From assembly GCF_001648555.1 (NCBI RefSeq), contig NZ_LQXM01000022.1, positions 62,001-126,000 of the forward strand: DNA of 64,000 nt, written 5' to 3'. Every line of letters starts with the position of its first letter. The first letter of the stretch is position 1. Positions 29,982 to 62,138 of the stretch are shown here, one piece after another. This DNA is from Rossellomorea aquimaris TF-12 (lineage in GTDB: Bacteria; Bacillota; Bacilli; Bacillales; Bacillaceae_B). The notes beneath the pieces are model-generated. The model was not told the DNA's origin. It was given only the letters and a program-made list of their open reading frames with translations, and searched no databases. The translations under genes and the position numbers were made by a program.

Positions 29982-30080
29982 ATGCTAAAAAACGAAAAAG
30001 GATTTACATTAATTGAAATAAATAGGTGTAAGAACCTTTATTTATTCCTTAAAGTCACCCTTTTTTCTCTACTTGAGTAA
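29982..30080 (+). pseudogene. comGC: comGC truncated by insertion of a mobile element
   Basis: GGAGGAGAACC precedes an ATG coding MLKNEKGFTLIE, the prepilin leader and processing site of the major pseudopilin ComGC. After codon 12 the sequence (INRCKNLYLFLK, then stop) no longer resembles a pilin, and the long hydrophobic helix is missing. The new sequence from about 30018 recurs at 42291, so the break is the left junction of an inserted element. The remaining comGC and comGD-comGG are not in the window. Confidence 0.9.
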
Positions 30081-30266: not shown

Positions 30267-30305
30267 AAAGGGACAGAACCTGATATTTTAGGTTCTGTCC
30301 CTTTT
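30267..30305. terminator. Strong hairpin terminator at the left end of element A
   Basis: AAAGGGACAGAACCT / AGGTTCTGTCCCTTT. The 490-base gap 30081-30567 also holds the left-end repeat and motif copy a; nothing else is recognisable. Confidence 0.8.
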
Positions 30306-30567: not shown

Positions 30568-31461
30568 ATGGATAGTAAACAACTTATAAAGAGATGGGTG
30601 GACTCGGTAGATAATATGCGTAACGGAAAGCTCGAAAAAATTATAGGGGAGTATTTGGATGAGGCTGAAAATTACTCGAAAAGTTATTCGCCAAACGATA
30701 TTCCTACTTTGTTAACTGAAAAGGTCATTAGTGGCTTAGCTTCAGAACTGAATATCGATGAAGAATCAGCTTTGACTATTATTTCATATGGAATTTATTT
30801 AATGGGGGAAGATGCAATCTCTGTGGTACATAAGTGTTTATCTAATGGAAACCCCTTTTCATTGAATAGTCTAGTATTCTTTGGAAGAAAGGCAGAAACA
30901 TATTTACCAGAAATAAGGATGGAATTATTAGAACAATACGCTGAAACAGATATAGAATTTATTGAGGAGTATTTGTTAATTTTAGCTTGGATTGGTACTA
31001 CTGATCAAAAAGAATTTGAATTCTTTGTCAAGTATTTAGATTTTCCTAATGAAGAAATCAGAAGTCAAGCAGTCACTACGCTATATATGATTTGCTTTAG
31101 TGAATACGGCATAAAGAAAGCATTAGATATGGCTATAAATGATGAATCTGAATTAGTGCGAAAAAATGCAGTTTCAGTTTTAAATAGCTATAAAAGATGT
31201 GGTGGAGAAGCAAAAGAGGTTGTTATCAAGTCATTAATTGGAAAAATTAAGAATGGAAATTTAGATATTGCTGAATCAGCTGCTTCTATTATTGTTGAGA
31301 AACTTTACTACTCAAGAGAAGATACTTCCTTGGAATTCTGCCCATATTTAAATCATATTATTGACCCAAAAAATAATTATCCCCATAAAACAAAGGAGAT
31401 AGCAAATAGGGTTCGGGAAGAAATATCATATCAAATTCTTAAGGCTTACCGTGGGGAATAA
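30568..31461 (+). CDS. HEAT-repeat-like protein, first gene of a helicase-nuclease operon
   Basis: A 297-residue, all-helical acidic protein. Degenerate HEAT repeats are visible (LDFPNEEIRSQAVTTLYMI, INDESELVRKNAVSVLNSY, NGNLDIAESAASIIVEKL), giving a probable scaffold or target-recognition surface. TTAGGAGGGGAAAA precedes the ATG. The next gene begins at its stop codon, so the two proteins are probably made together and may form a complex. I do not know a named family for it. Confidence 0.75.
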   Translation: MDSKQLIKRWVDSVDNMRNGKLEKIIGEYLDEAENYSKSYSPNDIPTLLTEKVISGLASELNIDEESALTIISYGIYLMGEDAISVVHKCLSNGNPFSLNSLVFFGRKAETYLPEIRMELLEQYAETDIEFIEEYLLILAWIGTTDQKEFEFFVKYLDFPNEEIRSQAVTTLYMICFSEYGIKKALDMAINDESELVRKNAVSVLNSYKRCGGEAKEVVIKSLIGKIKNGNLDIAESAASIIVEKLYYSREDTSLEFCPYLNHIIDPKNNYPHKTKEIANRVREEISYQILKAYRGE

Positions 31462-31462
31462 C

Positions 31463-34400
31463 ATGGAGGAGTTAGAAAAAGTGAATTATTATATTTCTGC
31501 ATCTAAAATTGCATCATTTTTTAAAACTGATTGTGAAAGACAACTATTATATTATGCTTCAAATAAGGCTAGTCCTGTCCAACAAGAAAACAATCTGTTT
31601 GTTGATCGAGGGAAGGATTGGGAAAAAAGGGTAAGAGAAACAATTAGTGAAAAGAACCAACTATTATCTGAAGAAGGCTGGAGTAAGGATAGCACAAAAA
31701 AATTAGTAGAGGTATTAACACATGTTGTAAAAGAGAGAAAAGTTAAATCCTATTTGTTTGACTCTGTTTTTACCATTCCTGAGTCATTCTACGATGAACT
31801 TGGATGTGATTCAAAGGTCTATACATTAAAGAGTATCATGCCTGATTTGGTTGAATTTGATTACAATATTACTGGTTCAGAAGTTAAGGTTAAGTTAATT
31901 GACATAAAGTCAACAGAGGAGTCTAAAATATCACATAAAGTACAAGTTGTTTTATATTCCATTATCTTAAATTCAATTATAAATATCATAAAATTGCCCT
32001 TAAAGACCACTTTAGATGTGGATGTATATTTAGATGATAGAGGAGGAGTATGGACTTACGAAGCAGAAGACTATGAAACATTTGAACTTCAAATATTTAA
32101 GGAATTCCTTATAAGTTTCTTAAAAAAAGATTTACCACATCTCTTAGAGAAAAATAGCAATGAAGTTATGTATCATGTAGACAAATCTTGCTCGGGTTGT
32201 CCCTTTCTTAAAGAATGCCAAAACGAAGCTTTAGAGAGTGAACATATATCTATTATTCCAGATATACCTAAAAGTATTACTTCATATTTAAATAAACGTG
32301 GATACTCCCCAACAATTCCTAATTTAAAGGAATTATTATCCAAGGAGGGAGAATCTTTAAAGAATACCTACTTATTTAAAAATCAAATAGATAAATTGCA
32401 TTATTATTGTAATGATTTCAACATAAAAGAAATTTCGATGAGAAACAGAGACTATTATCCTTTTCCAGAAGAGCAAGATCTCTCTGTCATTTTATATATT
32501 CAAAGAGATCCATTAACAAAAAAATTCTTTGCATTTGGCATTCTACCATACAATAAGGAGAATACTGAAGTAAACAATCCTATAACTTGGGTTGTAACAA
32601 CAAAAACAGAACAAGAAAAAGCTGGTCAGGAGTTCATTATATCTCTTCTTAAGGTTATGGAGGAAAATAGCGGAAAGAAGATTCATTTCTACTTTTACCA
32701 TTACTCTCATTATGAACAGTTAATGGAATTCTTTAAAGAAGTAGCAATCACAAGTGATAATAATCAGGAAATTAATCAGGTTACTCAATTACTATTGTGT
32801 TTTACATCTGATAAAAGTCTTGCATCCCCTTCATCTGTTTCAGATGATACAAAAATTAACAACACATACACAATTATTACTAATGTTATTCGAGAATCGT
32901 TAGTAATCTTCACTTCATTTGATTATCCAATAGATCAAGTATGCCAGTTTTTATATAGGGCTGGTACTGAGTTTGATGTTATTCACGAAACTACTATGTG
33001 TAAACCCTTTGAGTGGGAAATCCCATACAGTGAGCCATTTAGCCATAATATAGGTTCTCAGTTTTTTTTAATTCTAAATCAAAATAAAAATAGCAATGAG
33101 AAGGATAGAATTATTAATAAGACAAGTTCATTTATAGAATCTTATCTTAAAGGTGTTAACTTTGTCGCTCAAAATATTCCTATTCTAATTCGAGCGCAGG
33201 AGGGAGATGCGCTTTTTACAGAAGCGCAAAAAATGATGCTTCCAGCCGTTGAAACATATAATAAAGAGTTAATCGCCAGGCTGATTTTCTTTACTCACCA
33301 TGAATCAATGTTAAAATATAATGAAAAATTGAAGGAAAGAAGCTCTACATGGAACACACAAATAGAAGAGGGTAAAGCTCTTGAGGTGGAGTATGTAGGA
33401 AATGGAAAATTCAAAATTTGTAATTCAGAGCACACTGAACTAATCTTTCCAGGTACTTCTTGGTTTCTCACCACCCTAGACTCAGCTGGATGGTATGCAT
33501 TAAATGTAGTTGATGATTTTAAATCAAATAAAAAAGCGTCAGTCTTTGAGTTTAATTATAATGAGAAACCAACCACTATAATAGATTTAAATATACTTTC
33601 ATTAGATAAGATGTCACATGAAATTTTTATTGATTTAAATCAAGATACAGTAAAGAACCCTTTTCTATGGTTAAATACGCAAAAATATAAACTGTTAGAG
33701 GATACTCTAAATCCTACTAAAGGAGAGAGGTATGTCTTAGCTCCTAAATACATTGACTATACGATTAGCAAGATAATAAACCGATTAAAAGAATTAGATA
33801 AAGAGAATAATTGGAGTATTTCATTTGCTCAAGGAGATACGAGTCAACTTTACAATAAAATTTCCGACAGATCATTTTCAGATTCGTTAGATAATTTGGA
33901 TTTGCTTTTACATCAGATTTTTAAAGGTAATTTTTATCAAAAACAGGCTTTTAAACGTTTTGTTGATAAAAATTATAATTTGCTAATTGGCCCACCCGGT
34001 ACAGGGAAAACACATTTTATTGCTCATTGCATATTAACTTTTTGTAAGTTATTAATAAAAAATAACCAGATGTCTCATACGATAGTTGTTTCTGCGGCAA
34101 CTAATGAAGCTATTGAAGGCTGCCTTCAAAAGCTACTAGAATTTATTGAAGATAAAGAAAACGAAAATTTCTATTCTTCAATAAAAGAGCAGCTGAACAT
34201 ACTAAAATTCGCAAAATTTAAAACTCATGTACTAATTACTAAAAGTCAACTTTCAAATATTTATATACTAGATAGAAAAGAAGATTATGAATCATTTTTT
34301 AACAAAGTCTCTAGAGAGAAGATAACAATTGTTTTTACTACTCCTTACACTTTACAAAAGGCATATGCGGATAATGCTATCCCCCCTGATTTTCAATTTC

Positions 34401-35401
34401 AGACTCTGATTGTTGATGAGGCATCCCAATGTAAAATTCCAGATGCACTCATGTTATTTTCTCGCTTAGAACAAGAAAAAGAAAGAATCCTTCTTGTAGG
34501 AGATCATGAACAATTACCACCTGTAATAAAAGGGGAGTATGAAGATCCTTGGGGAATAACTAAATCTATTTTTGAACTTCTCATTAATCGGGATCAACAA
34601 AAAAAAATAACAACCCAATTAAATCAAAATTTTAGATCCAATAATATTATCTTGAGACATTCAGCAAATCTGATTTATGGAAAGCATTATTTGTCTAAAG
34701 GAGAAACAGCTACCCAGACTTTAGAGCTTCAAGAAAAACTAGAAAGGGTGGAAGAGAGCGATAGCAACTTATTTATTAAACAGATACTTTCGGATGTTTC
34801 ACCCTTAGTTATGTGTGAGTTAAAGGACTTTGAAGATAATGAGTATATAGCAAATCGAAAAAGTGATTTAGAATCTCTCCTCATCTATTTAACTGTTTCA
34901 GAGTTAGCTTCACATGCCAACTTAAATCAAAAGGAAATTCAACAAAAAATATTCATTATCTGTCCTCATAAGGCACAGATAACAAGTATTCGTAAGGTTT
35001 TTTCAAAGAAAGGATTAACATGCCCAACTATAGGTACAGTAGATAAGATGCAAGGACAACAAGCTGAAATTGTAATTATTAGTTATGCTGTTGCAGATAG
35101 TCACTTAATTGAGGATGAAGCCTCATTTATTTATAGTCGTAATAGATTAAATGTTGCCCTTACACGAGGAAAGAAAAAAGTGATTTTATTTTTATCAGAA
35201 AAACTTTTTCAACCCAATTATTTAGTGAAACTTGATCCACAACATCAGAAAAATATTGAATTTTTTATACGTTTAAAGCCAAGTTTTCAGGAAACTTTGC
35301 CTATGGTAATTAATGATTTTCCCGATTGGGATATAGAAAATTTTGAGCTACCTGAGGGTTCAGTAGGAATAGATGTTTATTCTAATTGGAATGATTCTTA
35401 A
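31463..35401 (+). CDS. Cas4-like nuclease / RNase H-like / SF1 helicase fusion (TM0106-type)
   Basis: A 1312-residue protein. The N-terminus is a RecB/Cas4-type nuclease: ISASKIASFF, P127-D128, D147-I-K149, and cysteines 24, 243, 246 and 252 spaced as for a 4Fe-4S cluster. Residues ~330-460 resemble the RNase H-like segment of TM0106-family proteins (HFYFYHYSHYEQL), but the expected acidic residue is not evident in ILYIQRDP. The C-terminal ~500 residues form a Dna2/Upf1-like SF1 helicase: GPPGTGKT (843-850), IVDEAS (983-988), GDHEQLPP, NQNFRS, and NVALTRGKKK near the end. GTG at 31451 is an alternative start. The likely role is DNA processing in phage or plasmid defence (inference). Confidence 0.88.
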   Translation: MEELEKVNYYISASKIASFFKTDCERQLLYYASNKASPVQQENNLFVDRGKDWEKRVRETISEKNQLLSEEGWSKDSTKKLVEVLTHVVKERKVKSYLFDSVFTIPESFYDELGCDSKVYTLKSIMPDLVEFDYNITGSEVKVKLIDIKSTEESKISHKVQVVLYSIILNSIINIIKLPLKTTLDVDVYLDDRGGVWTYEAEDYETFELQIFKEFLISFLKKDLPHLLEKNSNEVMYHVDKSCSGCPFLKECQNEALESEHISIIPDIPKSITSYLNKRGYSPTIPNLKELLSKEGESLKNTYLFKNQIDKLHYYCNDFNIKEISMRNRDYYPFPEEQDLSVILYIQRDPLTKKFFAFGILPYNKENTEVNNPITWVVTTKTEQEKAGQEFIISLLKVMEENSGKKIHFYFYHYSHYEQLMEFFKEVAITSDNNQEINQVTQLLLCFTSDKSLASPSSVSDDTKINNTYTIITNVIRESLVIFTSFDYPIDQVCQFLYRAGTEFDVIHETTMCKPFEWEIPYSEPFSHNIGSQFFLILNQNKNSNEKDRIINKTSSFIESYLKGVNFVAQNIPILIRAQEGDALFTEAQKMMLPAVETYNKELIARLIFFTHHESMLKYNEKLKERSSTWNTQIEEGKALEVEYVGNGKFKICNSEHTELIFPGTSWFLTTLDSAGWYALNVVDDFKSNKKASVFEFNYNEKPTTIIDLNILSLDKMSHEIFIDLNQDTVKNPFLWLNTQKYKLLEDTLNPTKGERYVLAPKYIDYTISKIINRLKELDKENNWSISFAQGDTSQLYNKISDRSFSDSLDNLDLLLHQIFKGNFYQKQAFKRFVDKNYNLLIGPPGTGKTHFIAHCILTFCKLLIKNNQMSHTIVVSAATNEAIEGCLQKLLEFIEDKENENFYSSIKEQLNILKFAKFKTHVLITKSQLSNIYILDRKEDYESFFNKVSREKITIVFTTPYTLQKAYADNAIPPDFQFQTLIVDEASQCKIPDALMLFSRLEQEKERILLVGDHEQLPPVIKGEYEDPWGITKSIFELLINRDQQKKITTQLNQNFRSNNIILRHSANLIYGKHYLSKGETATQTLELQEKLERVEESDSNLFIKQILSDVSPLVMCELKDFEDNEYIANRKSDLESLLIYLTVSELASHANLNQKEIQQKIFIICPHKAQITSIRKVFSKKGLTCPTIGTVDKMQGQQAEIVIISYAVADSHLIEDEASFIYSRNRLNVALTRGKKKVILFLSEKLFQPNYLVKLDPQHQKNIEFFIRLKPSFQETLPMVINDFPDWDIENFELPEGSVGIDVYSNWNDS

Positions 35402-35414
35402 GGAGGGGGATAGG

Positions 35415-35915
35415 ATGATTCAGGAGCTTAAAAACAACTTTTATTTATTAAATGTCCCTACTAATAGCCCAGAAATATATGAAAAGATACAAAACTCCAT
35501 TGAATTAGTACACACTAAACAAGGATTAGGTACTTTATCTAAAGTTAATACACTTGATATTTGGGCCAACAATGTTTTTGTAAGTACTAGTAGGGATATT
35601 ACAAATTCAATTCCTGAATATGAAGGTACTTTCGATTCTGTAGTAATTGCAATAACCTTGGACAGCAACATTACTATTTTGATGGCTATCCCCCATCAGG
35701 AAGAAAAATATAATAGTGTAAGGAAAATTAATCATTTTTTAGATACATTTTTTACCGAAGGTTGTTTTGCGAGACGTTTATTGGAAATATTAGAAATAAA
35801 GAATAAAAAATTCACTGAAGAATCACTATATTCTGGAAAGTCGATTCATAGAGTATGCATTGGGGAAAATCAAGTTAGTTTTCATTACGTTAATGGTGAG
35901 CTTAAGTTAATTTAG
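35415..35915 (+). CDS. Small protein of unknown function, third gene of the helicase-nuclease operon
   Basis: A 166-residue soluble, probably alpha/beta protein that I do not recognise. AGGAGGGGGATAGG lies between the helicase stop and the ATG at 35415, 14 bases downstream. It is followed by a strong terminator, so it closes a three-gene operon. A regulatory, inhibitor or substrate-binding subunit role is possible but not shown. Confidence 0.7.
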   Translation: MIQELKNNFYLLNVPTNSPEIYEKIQNSIELVHTKQGLGTLSKVNTLDIWANNVFVSTSRDITNSIPEYEGTFDSVVIAITLDSNITILMAIPHQEEKYNSVRKINHFLDTFFTEGCFARRLLEILEIKNKKFTEESLYSGKSIHRVCIGENQVSFHYVNGELKLI

Positions 35916-35979
35916 CGTATATTCAAAGTAAAGAGGGAAAAAACTTTAATATTCACATATTCAATTGCTGCCAAAGAAG

Positions 35980-36017
35980 CTCACAAATGTTGTTCAATTA
36001 ACATTTGTGAGTTTTTT
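35980..36017 (+). terminator. Terminator of the helicase-nuclease operon
   Basis: CTCACAAATGT / ACATTTGTGAG with TTTTTT. Confidence 0.9.
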
Positions 36018-36106
36018 AAAGTTGGAGAAATCATGTGAAAAGCCGTACACTAAAAAATTGCTTTTGTATAAAGAAGTGTAAACAATATGCGATTTACCAT
36101 TCATGA

Positions 36107-37020: not shown

Positions 37021-39120
37021 CTAAATCTTGCATGAACAAGAATTTATTTTCATTTTATTGATCCTTTGTTCAAAGTCTTTACCGCATGTACACAACCACC
37101 AAGCATTCCGAGTAGTTGTACTTGTTACATCCTTTGGAGTAGTAAGGTTATTTTTTGTTGGGTGCCATAGCAATGCTATTTGGGGTTTGATTGCTGCTAA
37201 GCTGTTTCCTTCGTATGCTCGATAATTATTACAATACGGGCATCCTTTTTTCTTTGACATACGATATATAGGCTCTCGCCATTGCTGCCTACAAATAAAG
37301 CAACACCAGTGTGCGTCTTTTCCGGAAGAAGCCGTAACCTCTTGAGGACAAAAATCATTTTTTGTTATATCCCATAGCTTTGCTATATCCGGTCTGATGG
37401 TAGCTAAACAATTCCCTGCATAAACGCGCGAGCCATCACAATATGGACAACCTTTTTTGCTTGTTCGACGACCGATTGGTTCTTTCCAGTCCTGTTTACA
37501 CTTTGAGCAAAACCACCATGCCTCTACCTTAGATCCAGGAAAGACTTGGTTTGGAGTGAGGGAACCATTTTTAGATGGGTGCCACATTGATGCCATTAAA
37601 GGATTATCACTTTTGAGTGAACGAACATGTCCAGCTTTATTTCCTGAGCAGAAGGGGCATGTTTGACCGTTTACTCTTTTGTTGACAATCGCATCCCATT
37701 CCTCAGAGCAATCGCTACATTTCCAATGAACACGTAGCACTGAACCTGGTAAGACATTCGTGGCGGATAAACCCCCATTTTTTTCCTCATCCCACTCCTT
37801 GGCGATATGTGGATAAAGATGAGCTAAACTTCTTTCTTTATGTTGCTTAATTGTTGAAGTCTGTATAGTAAGGGCATCCCTTTTTACATTTATGTCCATG
37901 ACTGCTAAAGCTGCCTCGACATCTAACGTACCAATTGTCTCTAAAATCCTTTTCATAACAAGCGCTATATCTATTTGTTTATTAGCATTGCATTGAAACT
38001 CAGTAGAACCATAAGTTTTAATAGTAGGCAATTTCTTATTGGGACCATTATTTTCTCGAATGCGGATAAGTTTTAATAGGTGTTGAAGTTCTTTATTTTT
38101 TTGCTCATCTTTTTTTCCTCTTTCCAAATGACTGAAGTATCCATCATATTCAATACCAAAATTATCATTTAGGTATAAATCCACTTCAACTTTTTTTCCA
38201 TCAATCCGCATTTTAAATTTGTTTTTACAGTTAGGGAAAATTTTCGATAGATAATAAAAGAAACACTGTTCTTGAAAGGATGTGCCATGCCCATAGTTGC
38301 ATTTAGGGCACGCTCTCCCTTTTTTTCTATTGTCAATACTGGCTTCCCATTCATGAGTACATACCTGACACTTCCACCATACTTTCTTTCCTGAGACAGG
38401 AGAAATTTTACTTGGGTCAATGGATTGGTTCTTTAAAGGATGCCACTCAATCATAAGTTCAGGGCTCATGGTCTTAAAGTTATATTTCTCTGATACCTTT
38501 TGCGGTGAAACTCGAGGATAACAAACACTGCACCTATTGCCAGTAACTCTAGCGCAAACCTTATCTTCCCACTCACAACCTTTTTCACATATCCACCAAA
38601 CCTTTTTATTAGACATTAGTGTAACATCATTGGGAGTTAGTGACCCATTCTGCTTGAAATTCCACTCTTTTGCTAATTCGGACCTTAAGGTGTTTAAGCA
38701 ATTTTCTTCTGTAGCTTTTTTCCCTGAGCAATATGGACATTTATCACCTCTTCTTGTTCGGTTTGCTACACTGGCCCTCCACTGATGTTTCTTTTTTTTA
38801 CAAATCCACCAATAGACCTTCGTAGTTGCTTTGGAAACTTCCTCTGGTTTTATGTTATTTTTCTCATAATTCCATTCTTCCGCAACATTAGGATGATTAA
38901 AAGCAAGGCTATTTTCAAGGGCTAAAAGGAAACCAGAACAATAAGGACAATTTGAACCTCTCTCCCTGTGATCTAATCTTGCTTCCCATTCATGACCTTG
39001 TTCACATAACCACCATAATTTTGCTTTAGCTAATACATCTAAATCATGAGGATTCAATCCAACATTTTTTTCCCAATTCCATTCTTTAATTAGGTTTTTG
39101 CTAAGTTTTTTTCGGACCAT
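37021..39120 (-). CDS. Zinc-ribbon-repeat protein with embedded Vsr/PD-(D/E)XK-like nuclease
   Basis: A 699-residue protein made of eight zinc-ribbon modules of the DUF4379 type. Each has EW(N/D/H)..KN, a WWxC..xCxxxW core and a closing CPYC pair. Four modules lie before and four after a central nuclease domain. The nuclease (about residues 270-350) has SFQEQCFFYYL, EVDLYLNDNFGIEYDG and IRIREN, the arrangement of Vsr-like restriction-fold enzymes. AGAGGTGG lies six bases before the ATG at 39120; GTG at 39129 is also in frame. A DNA-recognition and cleavage role in defence is inferred. It is transcribed opposite to its neighbours. Confidence 0.85.
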   Translation of the reverse strand: MVRKKLSKNLIKEWNWEKNVGLNPHDLDVLAKAKLWWLCEQGHEWEARLDHRERGSNCPYCSGFLLALENSLAFNHPNVAEEWNYEKNNIKPEEVSKATTKVYWWICKKKKHQWRASVANRTRRGDKCPYCSGKKATEENCLNTLRSELAKEWNFKQNGSLTPNDVTLMSNKKVWWICEKGCEWEDKVCARVTGNRCSVCYPRVSPQKVSEKYNFKTMSPELMIEWHPLKNQSIDPSKISPVSGKKVWWKCQVCTHEWEASIDNRKKGRACPKCNYGHGTSFQEQCFFYYLSKIFPNCKNKFKMRIDGKKVEVDLYLNDNFGIEYDGYFSHLERGKKDEQKNKELQHLLKLIRIRENNGPNKKLPTIKTYGSTEFQCNANKQIDIALVMKRILETIGTLDVEAALAVMDINVKRDALTIQTSTIKQHKERSLAHLYPHIAKEWDEEKNGGLSATNVLPGSVLRVHWKCSDCSEEWDAIVNKRVNGQTCPFCSGNKAGHVRSLKSDNPLMASMWHPSKNGSLTPNQVFPGSKVEAWWFCSKCKQDWKEPIGRRTSKKGCPYCDGSRVYAGNCLATIRPDIAKLWDITKNDFCPQEVTASSGKDAHWCCFICRQQWREPIYRMSKKKGCPYCNNYRAYEGNSLAAIKPQIALLWHPTKNNLTTPKDVTSTTTRNAWWLCTCGKDFEQRINKMKINSCSCKI

Positions 39121-39454
39121 ATATACCACCTCTTATTGAGAGGATTTGCATATATTTGAAAGAATATGTACTTCTACTAGAGGGAGAAAATATAAGATAC
39201 AGCCAACTAAACTTGCGAAATCTCTTTATTCATCAATCGAGGAGCTTAATTTCACTATGACAGATTTCTTATATTGTGTAATTTGTTTAATTAGTGGGGT
39301 AAGGGAGACGTTCTGGAAAACTCCTAGTTACTATCATTAATCATCTAATTAAACCAAAATTAATGAAATGAATATACTAAGAACTCTTATGTATTTCTTA
39401 TTTTTATAATACCAATTAGAGTAGCCCTACCTATGTTTTAGCATTTTTTACTTA

Positions 39455-39685
39455 TTGAGCAATTTAAAACCTTTACGAAAAAAACCAAAAAGAGGACTAA
39501 AAATCATTGGAGAGGTTGTGATAATTCCTTTAGCTTTTATAAAAATTCGAACTTGCATTGATGTAAGCATTACTACTTTGTTAAATACTAAAAAATTTTG
39601 GTTAATATTTGATATAATAGAACAATCTGGAAAGTTAAAGGAAGGAAAGGAATATGGTGAACAGATTTGGAAGAACATAAAGTGA
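39455..39685 (+). CDS. Possible small protein coupled to the OLD nuclease gene
   Basis: A 76-residue basic frame (LRKKPKRGLKIIGEVVIIPLAF and KKFWLIFDIIEQSGKL). Its stop overlaps the GTG start of the OLD gene (GTGA), which suggests coupling. Start at TTG 39455 has no clear ribosome site, so the true start may differ. No family recognised. The gap 39121-39454 holds nothing else that I can support. Confidence 0.4.
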   Translation: MSNLKPLRKKPKRGLKIIGEVVIIPLAFIKIRTCIDVSITTLLNTKKFWLIFDIIEQSGKLKEGKEYGEQIWKNIK

Positions 39686-41598
39686 AGCTCAAAAGAATTG
39701 CTGTAAAAAACTTTAGATGCTTTGACGGTAATGGAGTCATCTTAGATTTATCAGATAGGTTAACAGCTCTTATTGGTCCAAATAGTGTAGGTAAAACAAC
39801 TATATTTGAAGCGCTATTAAAAGTGTTTTCAAAAAATCCTATCGAACGTGTTTTTGGACCAGAAGATTTTTTTAGCAATTCATTAGAATTAAATATTGAA
39901 GTATTGCTTGAACTTCCTGATTGTAGTTTAGATTTAGATTGTATTTTTTATGAAGATACCAAAAATTATATCCTAGTAGATGTATTTGCTTTTCGTCTTA
40001 CTGAGTATGATGAAGTAACTTCAACATTTACTTACTACGGTAGTCTTAATAAGAAAGAGAAACTAACCATACATGTAGATGGCCATTCTCTAAAAGACGA
40101 GGAATTAAAAAATGTTGATTTTAGGAAGATAGATAATAACGGTAAGAACTTGAGGGGAATTTTAGAGATTTTTAAGTTATCTACTGAACGCTTTTCACTT
40201 AAGGATATTTCTCAACAAGGGGAATCATTACACGAAAATCTAACCAAGTTTTTAAAGGGAAAATTTAGTCATGAAGACAAAAAAAGGTTACAAGCTGAAA
40301 TTACTAAAAATGCTGAAAAAATCAACTCAGATATTAATAAAGTTTCTTTTATTGAAGAATTCTTAGAGGAATCAAGTAAAATATGGGAGGAGTTAAAAGC
40401 AAGCTCAAGTATTGACTTTAGATATACTCCTACCACCCTTGATGACTATCTGGAATATTTAAAAATAACATTAGATGGTAAGCAAATCGACGAATTAGGT
40501 GATGGTGAAAAATCACTAATTGCAATTTTATTAATGGCAACACTTCTAGAGTTCCATTCAAAATATCTATTATCTGAAGGGTATTGCAATTTAGTGCTAA
40601 TAGAGGAACCAGAAAACCATGTATCTCCTCAAGTTTTAGGGAGAATAGTTCAAACTTTAGAAAAAATTGGTGAAAAGCCAAATGTCCAAGTTGTATTAAC
40701 TACACATTCACCATCTATTATAAAACGTATATCACCGTTATCAATTAGGGTTATGGGTAACAAAAAGGCAGTTAAAAGGATCACTGAAACTGAGGTAGAT
40801 TTGAAGTATGTTAGAGGTGCTATACAAAAATATCCAGAATTATACTTTTCAAGACTAATAGTACTAGTTGAAGGAGATAGTGAGGAAGAAATTCTTCCCG
40901 ATTTCTTTAAGGAGCATAAAATTGATATTGATTTATATAATATATCAGTTGTCCCCTTAGGGGGGAGACATGTTAATCACCTGTGGAGATTAATGGAGGC
41001 ATTGGAATGTAATTACATAACTCTCTTGGATTTAGATCTTGGTAAATCAACAGGAGGGTGGTCAAGGTTAGAATCTGTTGTAAAAGATATTAAAAGGTAT
41101 AAGAAATTTCCTCCATATAAGAGACGAAGTGGGCATGAAAACTTAGATAGATTATTAAAGGAAATTCATTCTTATAAAATAAAAGAAGTGAAAGGGAGAA
41201 GAAATCAAGCTAAAACTTTTAGTAATATGATAAACATAATGAAAAGACTGGAGAAATATAATATTTACTTCTCTTCTCCTTTAGATTTCGATTTTCATAT
41301 GTTAGAGAGGTTTGAAAAGGAATATAAAACAACTATCAATGGAGAACCCAAGTTGTCAAGCAAACAGGCAATTAATAAGATTTTTAATTTAAAGACAGGA
41401 AAAATATTAAATTATACTTGTAACCAACAAGAATTATTTAATTGGTATAATTACTTATTTCTAGGGGAAAAAGGGAAACCGACTATACACAGGCTTGCAA
41501 TTGAAGAAATTAAAAAACACAACGGGTGGCACAACAAGCTACTTTCCCCTTTTGATCAACTCGTAGAAAATATTAAAAAGACTGTTAATATAAAATGA
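39682..41598 (+). CDS. OLD-family ATP-dependent endonuclease (AAA ATPase + TOPRIM)
   Basis: A ~638-residue protein. The ABC/SMC-like ATPase has FRCFDGNG, Walker A IGPNSVGKTT, signature-like LGDGEKSLIAIL, Walker B LVLIEEPENHVSPQ and LTTHSPSII. The C-terminal TOPRIM domain has LVEGDSEEEILPDFF with the metal-binding glutamate and LLDLDLG with paired aspartates. These are the hallmarks of OLD nucleases (P2 Old, GajA). No UvrD-like GajB gene is adjacent, so it is a solitary class 1-like OLD rather than Gabija. TTG at 39667 is an alternative start. Confidence 0.88.
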   Translation: MKLKRIAVKNFRCFDGNGVILDLSDRLTALIGPNSVGKTTIFEALLKVFSKNPIERVFGPEDFFSNSLELNIEVLLELPDCSLDLDCIFYEDTKNYILVDVFAFRLTEYDEVTSTFTYYGSLNKKEKLTIHVDGHSLKDEELKNVDFRKIDNNGKNLRGILEIFKLSTERFSLKDISQQGESLHENLTKFLKGKFSHEDKKRLQAEITKNAEKINSDINKVSFIEEFLEESSKIWEELKASSSIDFRYTPTTLDDYLEYLKITLDGKQIDELGDGEKSLIAILLMATLLEFHSKYLLSEGYCNLVLIEEPENHVSPQVLGRIVQTLEKIGEKPNVQVVLTTHSPSIIKRISPLSIRVMGNKKAVKRITETEVDLKYVRGAIQKYPELYFSRLIVLVEGDSEEEILPDFFKEHKIDIDLYNISVVPLGGRHVNHLWRLMEALECNYITLLDLDLGKSTGGWSRLESVVKDIKRYKKFPPYKRRSGHENLDRLLKEIHSYKIKEVKGRRNQAKTFSNMINIMKRLEKYNIYFSSPLDFDFHMLERFEKEYKTTINGEPKLSSKQAINKIFNLKTGKILNYTCNQQELFNWYNYLFLGEKGKPTIHRLAIEEIKKHNGWHNKLLSPFDQLVENIKKTVNIK

Positions 41599-41990: not shown

Positions 41991-42296
41991 AGGATTACGT
42001 AACCGGATGGAGAGGGGGAGGGGATGGGGGAAGCCACCGTTGGCTATACCTTTAATCGTGAAACTAAGGCTTTTGAAATTGATGAATTGTTCGCATGGGT
42101 GATACCAGCTATTGATAAGATGTATCTTCAAGGCATGGGAATGAAGGCAATTGCTGATAGGTTAAACGAATTATCTCCAATACCAGATATGAAATGCTGG
42201 AATGCAAGCTTTGTAGACAGGAGGTTAACATCAAAGGCTTTTCATGGAGTAATGGCAGTAACATTTAGGGATGGAAAGACTTCTCTATTGAGATGA
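41991..42296 (+). pseudogene. Remnant of a large serine recombinase (recombinase domain only)
   Basis: The fragment aligns with residues ~140-245 of the intact recombinase at 58319: GWGKPPLG (first frame), then YTFNRETKAFEIDELFAWVI, MGMKAIADRLNELS and RLTSKAFHGVM. One base is missing near 42040, so the first part is in another frame. The catalytic resolvase domain, zinc ribbon and coiled coil are lost. It ends exactly where the left-end repeat starts again. Confidence 0.85.
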
Positions 42297-42633: not shown

Positions 42634-43215
42634 ATGGCAAAGAAATATTATAAAAATGTTGAAGCATTAAAATCTGTAGATGAATTACTGTCAGCAGCAG
42701 ACCGTTCGTTAAGTACTTCAAGAGTTATTTTTACACCAGCTTCTACAGTACCACCAACATTAAAAAAATCCTTAATCGCAGTAGCAGGTACAGGAGCATT
42801 CGCAGCTGCTAGTGCTGGTACGATTGGTGCTACCGGGGCAGGGGTCGCAAGTCTTACTGGAGCAGGACTTGCATCCGGTGGACTAGGTACAGTTGGGGCG
42901 ATAGGTGCGGGCGCATTACTAGCACCAATGGTAATACCGGCAGCTATATTAAGTGGATTTGGTTATTTATTTTTTAAAAACAAAAAAAATAAAGAGCTTC
43001 GTGAAAAAATGGAGTATCGTTTGAAAAGGGCAGTGACAAAACAAAATGAAATCATTCTAAAATTAAAACTATATATTCGGAAACTTGAAGAAGCGACTGC
43101 TGATCTTTTAGAAGAAAATATGAAGCTCCGTCAAAAAATTGATGAATTAACTGCTGTAAATGAAGCATTAATGAGTGAAATTAATAAAATGATGAGTGAT
43201 TTATCAGCAGCATAA
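42634..43215 (+). CDS. Glycine-rich membrane-hairpin protein with C-terminal coiled coil
   Basis: A 193-residue protein. Residues ~45-115 form a Gly/Ala-rich hydrophobic stretch with glycine-zipper spacing (GTGAFAAASAGTIGATGAG, GAGALLAPMVIPAAILSGFG), able to make one or two membrane hairpins. Residues ~118-190 form a strong coiled coil. AGGAAGAAGGTCCTGAG precedes the ATG. The downstream gene starts 11 bases after its stop, so they form a two-gene unit. Family not recognised. Pore or membrane-effector function is speculation. Confidence 0.75.
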   Translation: MAKKYYKNVEALKSVDELLSAADRSLSTSRVIFTPASTVPPTLKKSLIAVAGTGAFAAASAGTIGATGAGVASLTGAGLASGGLGTVGAIGAGALLAPMVIPAAILSGFGYLFFKNKKNKELREKMEYRLKRAVTKQNEIILKLKLYIRKLEEATADLLEENMKLRQKIDELTAVNEALMSEINKMMSDLSAA

Positions 43216-43226
43216 GGCGGGATAAC

Positions 43227-44576
43227 ATGAATAAGGACCAACAAGAAATTTTAGATGTTTTAAATCATAATCGTAATCAATCTGAAAAGTTGTTAGATGA
43301 AATGAAATCTAATGTAATTACATTATCAAAAGAGGCTATGCAAGATAACGAACGCTCTAAGGCTTCCATATCTTCAACAGAAGATGTGATTCAACGCTCA
43401 TTACAAATTCTCTCAAGTCGTGGGATATCAGTAGATTTACCAATAACTCAGTTTGAAGGGAAAGTTCCTAAACAATCAAATAAAGAATATTATAAACGTG
43501 ATTGGAAAGAGATAGTTAAAGAGGCGCATACAAATGGATTTCAAGATACAACAATAGAAGACTTATTAACTCCACAAGAAATCACCGAGGCTGATTTAGA
43601 GTATATAGAAGTGAAAAAAGCATTTAGTCAAAAGACGCGCCTAAATAAAACTGACATATCGTTTTTACTTTTAGCAGTTGCGCTACAATGTGTTAGACAA
43701 TATATTTTCGCTAACGATAAATTTCGCTTTAACACTGCTAAGGATGCTGATAAAGCTATTAAAAGGCCATTAAAAAATATCACTCCTAATGAATGGAAAG
43801 AATTCTTACTGGGACCTGTACCATATGATGCGGTAACAAGACTTGATCCCTATTCTAATAGTACTGGACTAAGTGCAAATACACATCGTTATCGCACTCT
43901 AGGACATGATCCTATACTTGGATGGGTGTTTGGACCAGTTAATATTTTATCTCGATCTTTAACTAAAACTGATATTATTTCTACTTATGAAATAATAGGT
44001 GGTAAAATAGGTCCACTATATAATGGGATGACAATGGGGGCAATGCAAGCCGCCATTAAAAAGGCTGGAGAGGGAAAATACAATCTTCCTGCGGCTGTTG
44101 TTAAACAAGCAATTCATTTTGGCTCAGACTATTTTACAAAACAAGGTTTGCCATTGCCATTTGTTAGTTCTCTTGACAATAATCTCTCTCAAAAGCTAAT
44201 ACAACAATATAGTCTAGATACTTATTGTTTGACACGTGGTGCGTCTATGTCAATGTTTATTAACTCCCTAATGGGGCTTATTCACCAACTGTTTTATAAT
44301 GAGAAAAAACATGGTTCAAAGGAGCTTTATGAAGTAAGAACGCGTAAAGTTTTACTTATTGCCAATACAATAGCATCATCAAGCAATATAATATATGTGG
44401 CACTGTCGAAAGAGTTGAAAAAGCTAGATTTAGGAGGAATACTTGTGACAATTTACCGTATCATTTCCGATCTATCATTTATCAGCAGAATAAAGAAGGA
44501 ATTTATGCTTGAGCAGTTTGATAAAAGTATTTCAAAGGAACTAGATATTTTAGATAGTGAGCTTAGTAAAGTGTAA
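43227..44576 (+). CDS. 449-residue protein of unknown function, partner of the membrane-hairpin protein
   Basis: N-terminal ~75 residues are helical coiled coil (NRNQSEKLLDEMKSNV). A globular part follows with conserved-looking segments RPLKNITPNEWKEFLLGPVP, TGLSANTHRYRTLGHDPILGWVFG, and a hydrophobic C-terminal third. AAGGCGGGATAAC precedes the ATG. I do not recognise a family or an active site, although the THRYR...GHDP stretch contains possible catalytic or metal residues. Tight pairing with the upstream gene suggests a joint function. Confidence 0.75.
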   Translation: MNKDQQEILDVLNHNRNQSEKLLDEMKSNVITLSKEAMQDNERSKASISSTEDVIQRSLQILSSRGISVDLPITQFEGKVPKQSNKEYYKRDWKEIVKEAHTNGFQDTTIEDLLTPQEITEADLEYIEVKKAFSQKTRLNKTDISFLLLAVALQCVRQYIFANDKFRFNTAKDADKAIKRPLKNITPNEWKEFLLGPVPYDAVTRLDPYSNSTGLSANTHRYRTLGHDPILGWVFGPVNILSRSLTKTDIISTYEIIGGKIGPLYNGMTMGAMQAAIKKAGEGKYNLPAAVVKQAIHFGSDYFTKQGLPLPFVSSLDNNLSQKLIQQYSLDTYCLTRGASMSMFINSLMGLIHQLFYNEKKHGSKELYEVRTRKVLLIANTIASSSNIIYVALSKELKKLDLGGILVTIYRIISDLSFISRIKKEFMLEQFDKSISKELDILDSELSKV

Positions 44577-45188: not shown

Positions 45189-45376
45189 ATAGAAGTACCT
45201 GAATTTTGGGTGCTTTTTATTTTGCAGTACTCTAAGTCAATCTTATTCTTACTTCATGAAATGGAAATGATAATCGTCTTACTGATCATATCCATTTTGC
45301 TTTTCATTTCCATCCCGAATGTGCTTTATTACAAAAATATCCAATTTTGCAGAAGTTTGAGATATAATAATACTAA

Positions 45377-58318: not shown

Positions 58319-59869
58319 TTGAGTGAAATTTTAAATGCAATTTTAAGAGTGATTATTTATATCCGCGTATCTACAAAGCTACAGGAGACTAAGTACTCTC
58401 TCTCTGCACAGAAAGAGGAATTGACTAAGTATGCTAAAGACCAGGGTTGGAATATTGTAGCAACATACAGAGACATTGAAAGTGGAGGGAAATTAGAAAA
58501 AGAAGGAATGGACCAACTCCTGAATGATGTTGAAGAAGGAAAAACTGATGTAGTTTTGGTTATGGATCAGGATCGACTTTCGAGACTTGATGTAGCAGAA
58601 TGGGAATTTCTTAAGTCAACTTTACGAGATAATAAAGTGAAAATTGCAGAGCCAGGGAATATGGTCGATTTGGATAATGAGGATGACGAATTTATTTCCG
58701 ACATCAAAAATTTAATTGCTAGAAGAGAAAAGCGAGCAGTTGTTAAAAGAATGATGAGGGGAAAGCGCCAACGAATGAGAGATGGAAAGGGGTGGGGAAA
58801 AGCTCCACTTGGATACATCTTTAATAAAGAAACTAAAGTATATGAAATTGATGATGATTGGGCATGGGTGATCCCAACTATTGATGAAATGTATCTGGAG
58901 AAAAATATGGGGATGAAGGCTATTGCTGATAAATTGAATGAAGTTTCTAAGACCCCTTCAGGGACTCATTGGAATGAAACGTTGGTATACAGAAGACTGG
59001 TATCAAAAGCCTTTCATGGAGTAATGGAGAAGAATTTTGCAAATGGTGAAACGATTGCTATTTCAGATATCTATCCAAAGTTGAGAACAGTAGAAACCTG
59101 GGAGGAAATTCAGGAAGAAAGAGAAAAGAGGGCAAAAGTATATAAAGCTGATCAAAGACAAAATGATAATATCCACATGTTAAGAAAGACGTATATTAAA
59201 TGCGGTATGTGTAATCGGAAGATCCATGTAGCAAACCATGGTGGTAAAACAACACCAAGATATTACTTGAAACATGGGAGAAAGTTATGTCTAAAAGATA
59301 GATCAGTATGTAACATATCAATAAATACAATAAGACTTGATGATAATATTATCCGTGCTGTTAAAGAGATTTTGACAAATGAAGAGCTGGCTAAGAAATA
59401 CATTATGATAGACATAGATGAAGAAGAAATTCCAAAGTTAAAGTCTCAAATTAAGAAAAGCCAAAAAGTCATATCTCAAATAGAAGAAAAACAAGATAGA
59501 CTTTTAGACCTTTATCTAAATGGGGTACATTCGAAAGAAAAATTAGCAGAGAAAGATGAAGAATTTAAAAGGCAATTAGATCATCAGAAAAAAATATATA
59601 ATCAACAAAAAGCCAAGCTGGAGACACTTGAAAAACAAGAATGGAATTATGATTTGCTCTATCAGTATTTAGAGATTGCAGAATCAATGGAATATGAACT
59701 AACACCAAACGAACGTGTTCAGATGATTGGTGATTTGTTCCCTGAAGCAATATTGTATGAAGATAGAATTGTTTTAATTGCTGAACTTCATTTGGGTTTT
59801 CCAATTGAAATAGAGGTGAAAATTGATGAAGACCCATATTTGTGGCACCATACGAAAGAGATGAGTTAG
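58319..59869 (+). CDS. Large serine recombinase 1
   Basis: 516 residues. N-terminal resolvase domain with catalytic serine 18 (YIRVSTKLQETKYSLSAQ) and DQDRLSRLD. The recombinase domain is about 155-260 (GWGKAPLGYIFNKETK, KAFHGVM). The zinc ribbon has IKCGMCNRKI and the later cysteines LCLKDRSVC. A coiled coil spans about 375-450. TTG start, AAGGGGGCC upstream. It is the intact relative of the remnant at 41991, so it is the likely integrase of the comGC-site elements. Confidence 0.93.
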   Translation: MSEILNAILRVIIYIRVSTKLQETKYSLSAQKEELTKYAKDQGWNIVATYRDIESGGKLEKEGMDQLLNDVEEGKTDVVLVMDQDRLSRLDVAEWEFLKSTLRDNKVKIAEPGNMVDLDNEDDEFISDIKNLIARREKRAVVKRMMRGKRQRMRDGKGWGKAPLGYIFNKETKVYEIDDDWAWVIPTIDEMYLEKNMGMKAIADKLNEVSKTPSGTHWNETLVYRRLVSKAFHGVMEKNFANGETIAISDIYPKLRTVETWEEIQEEREKRAKVYKADQRQNDNIHMLRKTYIKCGMCNRKIHVANHGGKTTPRYYLKHGRKLCLKDRSVCNISINTIRLDDNIIRAVKEILTNEELAKKYIMIDIDEEEIPKLKSQIKKSQKVISQIEEKQDRLLDLYLNGVHSKEKLAEKDEEFKRQLDHQKKIYNQQKAKLETLEKQEWNYDLLYQYLEIAESMEYELTPNERVQMIGDLFPEAILYEDRIVLIAELHLGFPIEIEVKIDEDPYLWHHTKEMS

Positions 59870-60033
59870 AGGTACCCTGAAAACCAAGTTTTAATGGTAG
59901 TATTTCATAAGCAAATTTTTATAATTATTTTGGGGAATAAGGCCCGCAAATATAGAAAAAGGAAGCACCGATTCTATATAAAGTTAAGCCTACCTACAAA
60001 TATTAGCTAATAAATTAAAGTAAAACATAAGAA

Positions 60034-60107
60034 GAAGCACTTCTTGACGTTTGAGTTGTTACAGGTTTATTTCCTGTTTCAATTCTGGCGGCAAGAAGTG
60101 CTTTTTG
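60034..60107 (+). promoter_or_regulatory. Long hairpin with T run upstream of the recombinase pair (module copy 3)
   Basis: Outer stem AAGCACTTCTTG / CAAGAAGTGCTT, inner stem ACAGG / CCTGT, then TTTTTG. The sequence differs from copies 1 and 2, but the architecture and distance to a small gene are the same. Confidence 0.65.
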
Positions 60108-60127
60108 CTTTATAAGGGAGAGGCGTA

Positions 60128-60307
60128 ATGCGAAAAGTACTGGAACACAAAAATCAACCTCAAATTATGGAGAAAGAGGAAATTATTAAAGAGGACATTG
60201 CTGCAAATCATCCTTGGGTGCTTGATGTCCTTTCCAATTGTGAAGAATGTGAGATTCCTATCTTCACAATTCAAAGATTTATTAAATATTATTTGGGGAA
60301 AGAGTAG
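60128..60307 (+). CDS. Small protein before the recombinase pair (a)
   Basis: 59 residues (MRKVLEHKNQPQIMEKEEII, then NHPWVLDVLSNCEECEIPIF). AAGGGAGAGGCGTA precedes the ATG. It begins 21 bases after hairpin copy 3. No family recognised. Confidence 0.55.
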   Translation: MRKVLEHKNQPQIMEKEEIIKEDIAANHPWVLDVLSNCEECEIPIFTIQRFIKYYLGKE

Positions 60308-60317
60308 GCGAATTAAG

Positions 60318-60467
60318 ATGATACCATTATTCAGACTCTTAAGAGAGATCGAAGTGGAAATTGATTCGGGAATTACAGCGGTGTCCCGTAATCAGGAAGA
60401 TCATAATAATAGTGAAGTTTGTGAATACCAGGCAGAGCTTGATTTTGAGGAACTGCAGTCGTCCTAA
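60318..60467 (+). CDS. Small acidic protein before the recombinase pair (b)
   Basis: 49 residues (MIPLFRLLREIEVEIDSGIT). It begins ten bases after the stop of (a), with GGCGAATTAAG upstream. Probably translated with (a). Function unknown. Confidence 0.45.
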   Translation: MIPLFRLLREIEVEIDSGITAVSRNQEDHNNSEVCEYQAELDFEELQSS

Positions 60468-60543
60468 TCAAACTAATTGGTATAAAACTTTCCTTCTCTG
60501 TACATCATGTTATTACCAATTATGTACATAGGAGGAAATCTTT

Positions 60544-60726
60544 ATGAGTAAAGTGAGGGTCGTAAGGTCTTCATATAATGAGCACTTGCAAAAAGAATCC
60601 TATTTATTTTTACAAAGATTAATTGAAAAGGCTTTATTAGATGAGCTTAACCTTAATCCAATTCAAAAAGGAGTGTTATTGGAGAGTACTGATAAGAAGG
60701 AGGAATTTAAACATTTTGGGAATTGA
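60544..60726 (+). CDS. Small protein coupled to the recombinase pair (c)
   Basis: 60 residues (MSKVRVVRSSYNEHLQKESY). AGGAGGAAATCTTT precedes the ATG. The recombinase ATG at 60728 lies directly after its stop codon (TGATATG), so the two are coupled. Confidence 0.6.
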   Translation: MSKVRVVRSSYNEHLQKESYLFLQRLIEKALLDELNLNPIQKGVLLESTDKKEEFKHFGN

Positions 60727-60727
60727 T

Positions 60728-62137
60728 ATGTCATTATTAAAGCGCATGAATCAATTATATGAAGATTTTGTTTATACCTATGCAAGAGTTAGTACAGCTT
60801 CGCAAGATATAGAGCAACAGACTATCAAAATCAAACAATATCTGAAGCGTAATAATATCCCCTTAGATAAAGTTAAGTTTTTAAAAGATAATGATATTTC
60901 TGCGAATAAACTCTCTTTAGATAAAAGACCAGGTTTAGAGGAACTTCGAATGCTCATAAAGCAAGGGAAGGTAAAAACGTTAATTGTGTATCATCGGGAT
61001 CGACTCGCAAGGAATTTTTATGAATACGCTCTTCTTGTAAAAGAATTATATAAATACAATGTTGAAGTAATCTTTGTAGCAACTAATCATCCTGCTTTTT
61101 CAAAGGACTTTTTCACGGAAGCGGTTCATGGAATGTTAGCACAAAATAATGGTTTAACAATCAGTAGCCGAACTCTGGATGCTATGGAACAGTTTCCCGC
61201 AACACCCTGGTTAGGATATAGCAGAAAAGGTAAAAAATCAGAAACAAAATACTTTCCTGACCCCAAAAAGGCCCCTCAAATCAAGGGATTCTTTCATGAA
61301 GTGGCTAAAATTAAAACTGCTGAAGAATTAATCGAACTACTTTCTGAAAAAAAAACAGTGTTTCACGGTAAAAGATTTGATGAAATACTGAATTATTTAT
61401 GCAACCCTTTTTATTGCGGCCATATAAGAAAAGGCGATCACTATTATAAACTTGACCACGTAGAGCCTATTATTGACTTGAATATATTTTTGAAGGTGGC
61501 TTCTAATTTAGAGAAGGTAAAGAGAAGAGTTCTAGATGCAATTAATGCTTCACTTGAACGTTCGAGCATCACACCAGTTTGCTCAAAATGCAAAACGCAA
61601 ATGAAATTTAGGACCGGAAAATTAGGAAATAGTGGGTACTACGTTTGTTCAAACAAACACTATCAAATTAAGATTCAAGTTGATGAACTTAATGGAGATT
61701 TTGAGAAACATTTTAAAGAAATTATGCCTCGTCTTGACCTAGACCTATTAAGAAAAGAAATCAGAGTTATTCTAAATAGAAAAAAAGAAACATTAAAAAA
61801 TAAATTCCAGAGCATAGAAAAAGTGATAAATAAACTTAATGATGATTTAGGTCTTTTATCACCTACTGAATCTGATCAAATTAAGTATTTATTTAATCGC
61901 ATTGATATATTGAAGGATGAACTGGAACAAGTACATTCTTCCTTGACTAGAATAGATGATGCCTTTAGTGAGTTAAAACAGCTTTCTGTTCTGATAAAAA
62001 ACTATTTAGTTGAGGAATTAGAGCAGTATGAACTCTATTATATGTACCAGTCTTTCATTGAAAAAATTGAGGTGGATCGAGATAAGATTATATATTTTAA
62101 CCCATTTGCAAGATTTTTTCGGGAGGAGTTAGAATAG
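60728..62137 (+). CDS. Large serine recombinase 2 (first of a tandem pair)
   Basis: 469 residues. Resolvase domain with catalytic serine 22 (TYARVSTASQDIEQQ) and VYHRDRLARN. The following region is short and unusual (MLAQNNGLTISSRTLDAMEQ). Zinc ribbon CSKCKTQMKF with YYVCSNKHY; coiled coil about 340-430. The frame extends upstream to 60641, but the ATG at 60728 with AAGGAGG-like sequence upstream is preferred. Its paralogue follows after one base, a layout like ccrA-ccrB of staphylococcal cassettes. Confidence 0.9.
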   Translation: MSLLKRMNQLYEDFVYTYARVSTASQDIEQQTIKIKQYLKRNNIPLDKVKFLKDNDISANKLSLDKRPGLEELRMLIKQGKVKTLIVYHRDRLARNFYEYALLVKELYKYNVEVIFVATNHPAFSKDFFTEAVHGMLAQNNGLTISSRTLDAMEQFPATPWLGYSRKGKKSETKYFPDPKKAPQIKGFFHEVAKIKTAEELIELLSEKKTVFHGKRFDEILNYLCNPFYCGHIRKGDHYYKLDHVEPIIDLNIFLKVASNLEKVKRRVLDAINASLERSSITPVCSKCKTQMKFRTGKLGNSGYYVCSNKHYQIKIQVDELNGDFEKHFKEIMPRLDLDLLRKEIRVILNRKKETLKNKFQSIEKVINKLNDDLGLLSPTESDQIKYLFNRIDILKDELEQVHSSLTRIDDAFSELKQLSVLIKNYLVEELEQYELYYMYQSFIEKIEVDRDKIIYFNPFARFFREELE

Positions 62138-62138
62138 G

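What the first reader, a model, noticed from the sequence alone, without database searches (positions are those of the whole stretch)
30568..35915. Three-gene operon: HEAT-repeat protein, Cas4-like/SF1 helicase fusion, small unknown protein
The sequence shows three tightly spaced genes ending in a terminator inside a mobile element. The large protein combines a Cas4-type Fe-S nuclease (C24, C243, C246, C252; D147-x-K149), an RNase H-like segment and a complete SF1 helicase. TM0106-type nuclease/helicase fusions are known, but I do not recall a named defence system with this HEAT partner plus this 166-residue third gene. Its location with two other nuclease genes suggests anti-phage or anti-plasmid function (inference).
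Basis: partly seen in the sequence, partly recalled or inferred. Interest (0 to 1): 0.75.

Follow-up and report, generated by a model that had tools for sequence, protein, structure and literature searches.

The report
Orphan Dna2-like nuclease-helicase operon in comGC
A mobile island inserted in a competence gene carries a three-gene operon built around a large enzyme predicted to unwind and cut DNA; the enzyme belongs to a widespread unnamed family that in several genomes sits beside anti-phage genes, but its two partner genes were not found elsewhere, so a three-part defence system is plausible and unproven.

Summary
Three intact genes lie head to tail: HEAT protein (297 aa), 1312-aa enzyme, 166-aa orphan, with gaps of 1 and 13 nt, ribosome-binding sites and a strong hairpin with a T-run behind. 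The enzyme has a Cas4/Dna2-type Fe-S nuclease (C24, D128, D147-x-K149, Q161, Y165, C243, C246, C252; identical in 27 of 27 aligned sequences), a polymerase-B-like exonuclease domain whose first catalytic motif is lost, and a complete UPF1/DNA2-type SF1 helicase. No library family covers its length. Relatives come in two forms: one fused protein (Bacillota, Planctomycetota, Myxococcota, Chloroflexota, Archaea), in some Geobacillus beside Zorya or a type III methylase; and a split pair whose helicase half is DpdJ in the one record tested. The window protein is a very divergent fused member (about 25% identity at most over the N-terminal part). The enzyme is a credible DNA-targeting defence nuclease; the trio is so far a unique combination with two unexplained genes. 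The island splits comGC and runs past the window (about 44.7 kb).

The parts
30568..31461 (+). P1, HEAT-repeat protein, 297 aa; RBS AGGAGGGG upstream
   Evidence: HEAT_2 3.8e-7; RBS; no match in plasmids, none confirmed in viral contigs, 1 of 398 class genomes = own
31463..35401 (+). P2, 1312-aa Fe-S nuclease / pseudo-exonuclease / SF1 helicase (ATG start preferred; GTG 31451 also open)
31463..32350 (+). P2 residues 1-~296: Cas4/Dna2-type Fe-S PD-(D/E)XK nuclease (C24, D128, D147-x-K149, Q161xxxY165, C243xxC246x5C252)
   Evidence: invariant in 27 of 27; model matches Cas4 7mi5_A over residues 6-267, Z 13.8, 196 residues, 3.2 A
32471..33238 (+). P2 residues 337-592: DNA-polymerase-B-like exonuclease fold with the first acidic motif lost (Y345-x-Q347)
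33917..35227 (+). P2 residues ~819-1255: UPF1/DNA2-type SF1 helicase
   Evidence: AAA_11/AAA_12; DNA2 5eax E 1.4e-19; motifs
35415..35915 (+). P3, 166-aa orphan protein, no family
   Evidence: no Pfam, PADLOC, NCBIfam or PHROGs match; no confident relative; AlphaFold pLDDT 39, unusable
35980..36017 (+). hairpin plus T-run, likely terminator of the operon
   Evidence: the scan lists it on the - strand only
30012..30019 (+). left island junction inside comGC: core ATTGAAAT, shared with the right junction at G000:C21:136717

Best explanation
A mobile-island operon whose working enzyme is a Dna2-like nuclease-helicase aimed at foreign DNA. P2 probably loads on single-stranded or ended DNA with its UPF1/DNA2-type helicase motor, moves by ATP hydrolysis, feeds the strand to the Fe-S-stabilised Cas4-type nuclease and cuts it; the exonuclease-like middle domain, with its first catalytic motif gone, is probably a DNA-holding scaffold. 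P1 (HEAT solenoid) and P3 would be lineage-specific accessories that recruit, license or restrain the nuclease, a role taken elsewhere in this family by other neighbours (a type III methylase, the Dpd machinery) or by none. Shown: gene layout, domain content, invariant catalytic and cysteine residues, lost exonuclease motif, defence-gene neighbours of some relatives. Inferred: DNA as substrate, polarity, the roles of P1 and P3, and defence itself.
For: Operon geometry and hairpin. Nuclease residues identical in 27 of 27, helicase motifs nearly so in 18 aligned proteins. Cas4 fold for residues 6-267; best PDB sequence match DNA2 over the helicase. In Geobacillus L020 the family gene is followed by ZorA, ZorB, ZorC and ZorD (ZorD cut by the end of the locus) and in L019 by ZorA and the same gene clusters; type III methylases are 3 of 124 neighbour proteins (one of them singly). 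In L017/L038 the gene is followed by a 321-aa protein with MTase_I-type matches, a ZacC-like SNF2 protein (639 bits) and a protein with weak SIR2-type matches. In 25 of 49 loci it is split, with a ~2100-aa second ORF (my count); in the phage record L005 that ORF is DpdJ at 1819 bits. The window island also holds GajA-like and BnzB-like genes.
Against: P1 and P3 co-occur with no relative of P2 and were not credibly found in other class genomes. Some relatives lie next to genes that look like housekeeping (L024, L025), and five of ten neighbours scanned singly matched no defence model. The most frequent Pfam families among 124 neighbours are iron-transport ones (FecCD, ABC_tran). No activity data. 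UPF1-like helicases also act on RNA (passages of PMC11090510).
Confidence: 0.55

Rival explanations
1. P2 alone is the functional unit, as it may be in relatives without a fixed partner; P1 and P3 are unrelated passengers that happen to be co-transcribed.
For: Of 19 fused-protein loci (my count) none carries a P1 or P3 relative, and no neighbour is shared across the family; L024 and L025 lie next to genes that look like housekeeping.
Against: Gaps of 1 and 13 nt, own ribosome-binding sites and a shared hairpin argue that the three are made together.
Confidence: 0.25
2. The operon serves repair or replication of the mobile island itself (end processing, fork restart), like AddAB or Dna2, and not defence.
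For: Domain order and best solved-structure match are those of Dna2, a replication and repair enzyme.
Against: Relatives sit beside Zorya genes, a type III methylase or a DpdJ-type helicase; mobility genes were not systematically tested among their neighbours.
Confidence: 0.15
3. An RNA-directed system, as proposed for the UPF1-like helicases of CoCoNuT systems.
For: The helicase also scores against SEN1, NAM7/UPF1 and SMUBP-2; passages of PMC11090510 describe UPF1-like helicases in predicted RNA-targeting systems.
Against: DNA2 is the best match, 1.4e-19 against 1.5e-12 for the next, and Cas4/Dna2-type Fe-S nucleases act on DNA (family knowledge; background passage of PMC5704561).
Confidence: 0.08

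Closest known systems
Dna2 (eukaryotic nuclease-helicase)
   Same: N-terminal Fe-S Cas4-type nuclease with one Cys before and three after the catalytic core (Dna2 layout recalled), then an SF1 UPF1-type helicase; DNA2 is the best PDB sequence match, over residues 818-1245
   Different: An extra polymerase-B-like pseudo-exonuclease domain between the two; no sequence match to the DNA2 nuclease part; bacterial operon with HEAT and orphan partners
TM0106 / TIGR03491 RecB-like nucleases, some fused to helicases
   Same: Nuclease and RNase H-like part; weak match 6.8e-9, residues 224-423; several plasmid proteins so named match the P2 helicase
   Different: 35.2 bits against a cut-off of 97.45
DpdJ with the nuclease gene in front of it
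   Same: Both halves of P2 are homologous to the pair: a ~750-aa nuclease/pseudo-exonuclease, then positions 51-457 of the DpdJ model
   Different: P2 is one protein and lacks the rest of the 2112-position DpdJ model; no Dpd modification gene matched among the 8 window proteins scanned
UvrD-Cas4 fusions (PMC5704561, passages)
   Same: Cas4-like nuclease fused to an SF1 helicase, proposed there for defence
   Different: Helicase is UvrD-type there and UPF1/DNA2-type here
Mokosh (MkoA/MkoC)
   Same: SF1 helicase module, E 3e-37
   Different: Only the helicase end aligns (residues 742-1246, profile 540-1072 of 1112)

Membership tests
Cas4/Dna2-type Fe-S nuclease | four Cys bracketing a PD-(D/E)XK core with D, D-x-K and QxxxY | tested here: met
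   all present and identical in 27 of 27; Cas4 fold
Cas4/Dna2-type Fe-S nuclease | bound [4Fe-4S] cluster and nuclease activity | not testable with these tools
   needs purified protein
SF1 UPF1/DNA2-type helicase | AAA_11/AAA_12 with motifs I, II, III, V, VI | tested here: met
active DEDD exonuclease | D-x-E in the first strand (D141/E143 of archaeal polymerases, recalled) | tested here: not met
   position 345 is Y or T and 347 is Q in 18 of 18 fused proteins; 0 of 27 have D-x-E there. That 345/347 correspond to 141/143 is inferred from the first aligned residues 339/135
TM0106 family (TIGR03491) | score above the curated cut-off 97.45 | tested here: not met
   35.2 bits, residues 224-423 only
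DpdJ | match over the 2112-position DpdJ model | tested here: not met
   profile positions 51-457 only
Mokosh | match over the whole MkoA or MkoC models | tested here: not met
   helicase end only: MkoA 540-1072 of 1112 and 1296-1571 of 1607, MkoC best stretch 851-949 of 1136
a named defence system that contains P1 and P3 | PADLOC or NCBIfam models for P1 and P3 | tested here: not met
   P3 none, P1 only HEAT-ARM_XIII at E 0.03; neither has an NCBIfam match. PADLOC copy is of 2023, so later systems are untested
conserved three-gene system | P1 and P3 next to P2 relatives elsewhere | tested here: not met
   0 of 61 loci hold a P1 or P3 relative at E < 1; no HEAT family among the 25 Pfam families listed first for 124 neighbours (one search found 124 families, those with a single member mostly unlisted)

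The most novel reading that the evidence does not exclude
A new three-component anti-DNA defence system in which a HEAT protein and an orphan 166-aa protein direct or gate a Dna2-like nuclease-helicase, one of several independent recruitments of an unnamed helicase-nuclease family that also supplies, in split form, a nuclease and the first motor of Dpd systems.
Probability: 0.35. Interest if true: 0.62.

Novelty: new variant of a known kind. Interest (0 to 1): 0.48.

Why it matters
The finding points to a family that none of the libraries used here names over its length: Dna2-like architecture, a probably dead polymerase-type exonuclease inside, and recruitment beside different defence machineries, DpdJ among them. 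That makes testable whether one helicase-nuclease core is re-used with different target-discriminating partners, and gives a candidate nuclease for Dpd systems. The trio itself would matter only if P1 and P3 prove to be needed.

Tried and rejected
TM0106, DpdJ and Mokosh membership were considered and fail. L024 looked like a second trio (243-aa gene before, 160-aa gene after the P2 relative), but Pfam calls the flanking genes a uracil-DNA-glycosylase-like protein and a deaminase, and they do not match P1 or P3. Weak P3 matches in 5 other genomes (E 6e-4 to 9e-3) are, by my reading of their sequences, FolP-like and CbiZ-like proteins and about what chance gives in 398 genomes. P3 fold: pLDDT 39, not searched further. 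Two PDB rows for P3 at E 0.13 and 0.7 were taken as chance; P1's one PDB row is a synthetic fusion protein, 8.8e-6. P2 against plasmids: 121 records match, mostly the helicase third, and none covers 80% of it; against phages 3 records. Single-protein pattern scans of genome contigs and viral contigs found no relative; the alignment A1 of the N-terminal part did. Tree of the N-terminal part: P2 joins the fused clade, but on a branch of 3.05 with the program's warning that long branches meet, so its place is unsure. No Dna2 chain is in the two lists of 50 fold matches; that says nothing either way. Papers: full-text searches for Azaca+Bunzi+Mokosh (3 papers), dpdJ+dpdI+helicase (64, none), TM0106+helicase (65, none), HEAT repeat/defence system/Cas4-like/helicase (66, 17 papers), comGC+serine recombinase, Dna2-like+anti-phage+bacteria, HEAT repeat+antiphage+helicase+nuclease. 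In the listings, and in the passages seen of PMC5704561, PMC7600539 and PMC11090510, I saw no description of this family or trio; most subscription papers are not held, so this is no proof of absence from print.

Full report
What is there. Three + strand genes fill 30568-35915. P1 ends at 31461, P2 starts best at ATG 31463, P2 ends at 35401 and P3 starts best at ATG 35415, each behind a good ribosome-binding site, with gaps of 1 and 13 nt. A hairpin at 35980-36011 followed by TTTTTT closes the unit (stretch 35970-36025: -23 kcal/mol, z -6.6), although the pattern scan lists it on the - strand only. G+C is 31.1% against 35.6% for window 1-29900.

The island. The genes to the left are comGA- and comGB-like (T2SSE and T2SSF); comGC is broken after the codons for GFTLIE. 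The missing comGC remainder, followed by a comGD-like ORF and further on a gcvT-like one (my reading of the sequences), begins at about G000:C21:136723, some 44.7 kb on. Left and right junctions share the 8-bp core ATTGAAAT (window 30012-30019 and C21:136717). A second, diverged piece of comGC (window about 45256-45322) sits inside, so the island is probably two elements in tandem: one of about 15 kb that holds the operon, and one of about 29 kb with three large serine recombinases at 58319, 60641 and 62139. That is inference. comGC is a known prophage site in pneumococcus (passages of PMC7600539). The genome is flagged 9.56% contaminated, but this contig has competence genes on both sides of the island.

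The enzyme. An alignment of about the first 820 residues of 27 proteins leaves C24, D128, D147, K149, Q161, Y165, C243, C246 and C252 without exception, the signature of Cas4/AddB/Dna2-type Fe-S nucleases (family knowledge). The AlphaFold model of residues 1-819 (pLDDT 75.5, 27 sequences) puts residues 6-267 on Cas4 (7mi5_A, Z 13.8, 196 residues, 3.2 A) and residues 338-589 on the exonuclease domain of family-B DNA polymerases (5iud_D, Z 11.9, 173 residues, 3.0 A); Foldseek itself gives one match with E <= 0.001, Cas4 8d3l_I at 4.2e-4. In this second domain the first catalytic motif is gone: position 345 is T or Y and 347 is Q in 18 of 18 fused proteins, and none of 27 has D-x-E there. It is most likely a dead exonuclease, as in DNA polymerase alpha (recalled). 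Residues 819-1255 are a complete SF1 helicase, closest by sequence among solved structures to DNA2 (E 1.4e-19).

Relatives. In the window's family P2 was found in 1 of 36 genomes at E <= 1e-10, its own; in the class in 2 of 398 at E <= 1e-20 (own and G282, 29% identity); in the phylum 10 of 398 matched at E <= 1e-15, of which two are full-length, the own one and G576, while the other eight match the helicase only. In plasmids 121 records match but none covers 80% of P2, and in phages 3; the best of each (L004, L005) match both halves, as two ORFs. The alignment-based scan of 84,980 species gave 82 pattern matches and 49 confirmed loci. By my count: 19 of 49 hold both halves in one ORF (three cut by contig ends); 25 hold them as two ORFs, the second about 2100 aa (two cut short); 3 hold the first half only (two at contig ends; L037 a 330-aa ORF); L057 is in pieces; in L067 only the second half scored. 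In the phage record L005 the second ORF is DpdJ (1819 bits) and the first matches no Dpd model; the second ORFs of the 25 loci were not tested against DpdJ. In the tree of the N-terminal part the window protein joins the fused clade (100/100) on a branch of 3.05, so its exact place is unsure.

Neighbours. The 19 fused loci gave 124 neighbour ORFs, up to four each side. Pfam's most frequent hits are iron-transport families, FecCD and ABC_tran in 4 members each, probably from the site that several Geobacillus loci share. PADLOC finds mad3-like ATPases in 4, type III methylases in 3, and ZorA and ZorD in 2 each (25 of 128 families listed). L020 carries ZorA, ZorB, ZorC and ZorD behind the P2 relative, the first after 336 nt; L029 has the methylase 8 nt behind it. 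Of ten neighbours scanned singly, five matched defence models and five none. L017 has, behind the P2 relative, a 321-aa protein with MTase_I-type matches, a ZacC-like protein and one with weak SIR2-type matches. L024 and L025 lie next to genes that look like housekeeping, and L031 next to a transposase. So the family lies with defence genes in several loci but has no fixed partner.

The two partners. P1 and P3 match nothing at E < 1 among 3032 ORFs of 61 loci. P1 occurs in 1 of 398 class genomes at E <= 1e-5, the own one; P3 in the own one plus 5 chance-level rows. Plasmids gave no match for either, viral contigs none confirmed. P3 has no family in four libraries and no usable model. The trio is therefore, so far, unique to this island.

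Reading. The best-supported account is a mobile defence-type operon with a Dna2-like nuclease-helicase as its working part; the roles of P1 and P3 are open.

Noticed in passing
window 30012 to beyond 64000 (G000:C21:92012-136724): A roughly 44.7-kb island splits comGC, with an 8-bp shared core ATTGAAAT at both ends; competence should be lost in this strain (inference).
   Followed up: partly
45256-45322: A diverged internal piece of comGC, which suggests two elements in tandem or an imported attachment site.
   Followed up: partly
58319-63779: Three large serine recombinases in the same direction; a relative of the second occurs at E <= 1e-40 in 4 of 36 family genomes, own included.
   Followed up: partly
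42024-42296: A 90-aa remnant that resembles, by eye, the middle of the serine recombinase at 58319.
   Followed up: no
39667-41598: GajA-like OLD nuclease (PADLOC 6.7e-125) with no further ORF of 200 aa or more directly behind it to be GajB.
   Followed up: no
42634-44576: BnzB-like protein of Bunzi (1.6e-29) behind a 193-aa protein that looks membrane-bound by eye and may be its partner.
   Followed up: no
37021-39129: Eight DUF4379 zinc-finger stretches with an inserted part that looks by eye like a Vsr/DUF559-type nuclease, on the - strand.
   Followed up: no
L019, L020 against L018/L027, L022, L029: In Geobacillus the P2 relative is followed either by Zorya genes or by a type III methylase, in part at what looks like the same chromosomal site.
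   Followed up: partly
L005:9986-12247, and 25 loci with the split form: The ~750-aa Cas4-like nuclease gene in front of the DpdJ-type helicase matched no Dpd model in PADLOC where tested (L005); it is the split form of the P2 N-terminal half.
   Followed up: partly
30267-30304: A long palindrome with T-rich tails on both strands, probably a bidirectional terminator between the comGC stump and P1.
   Followed up: no
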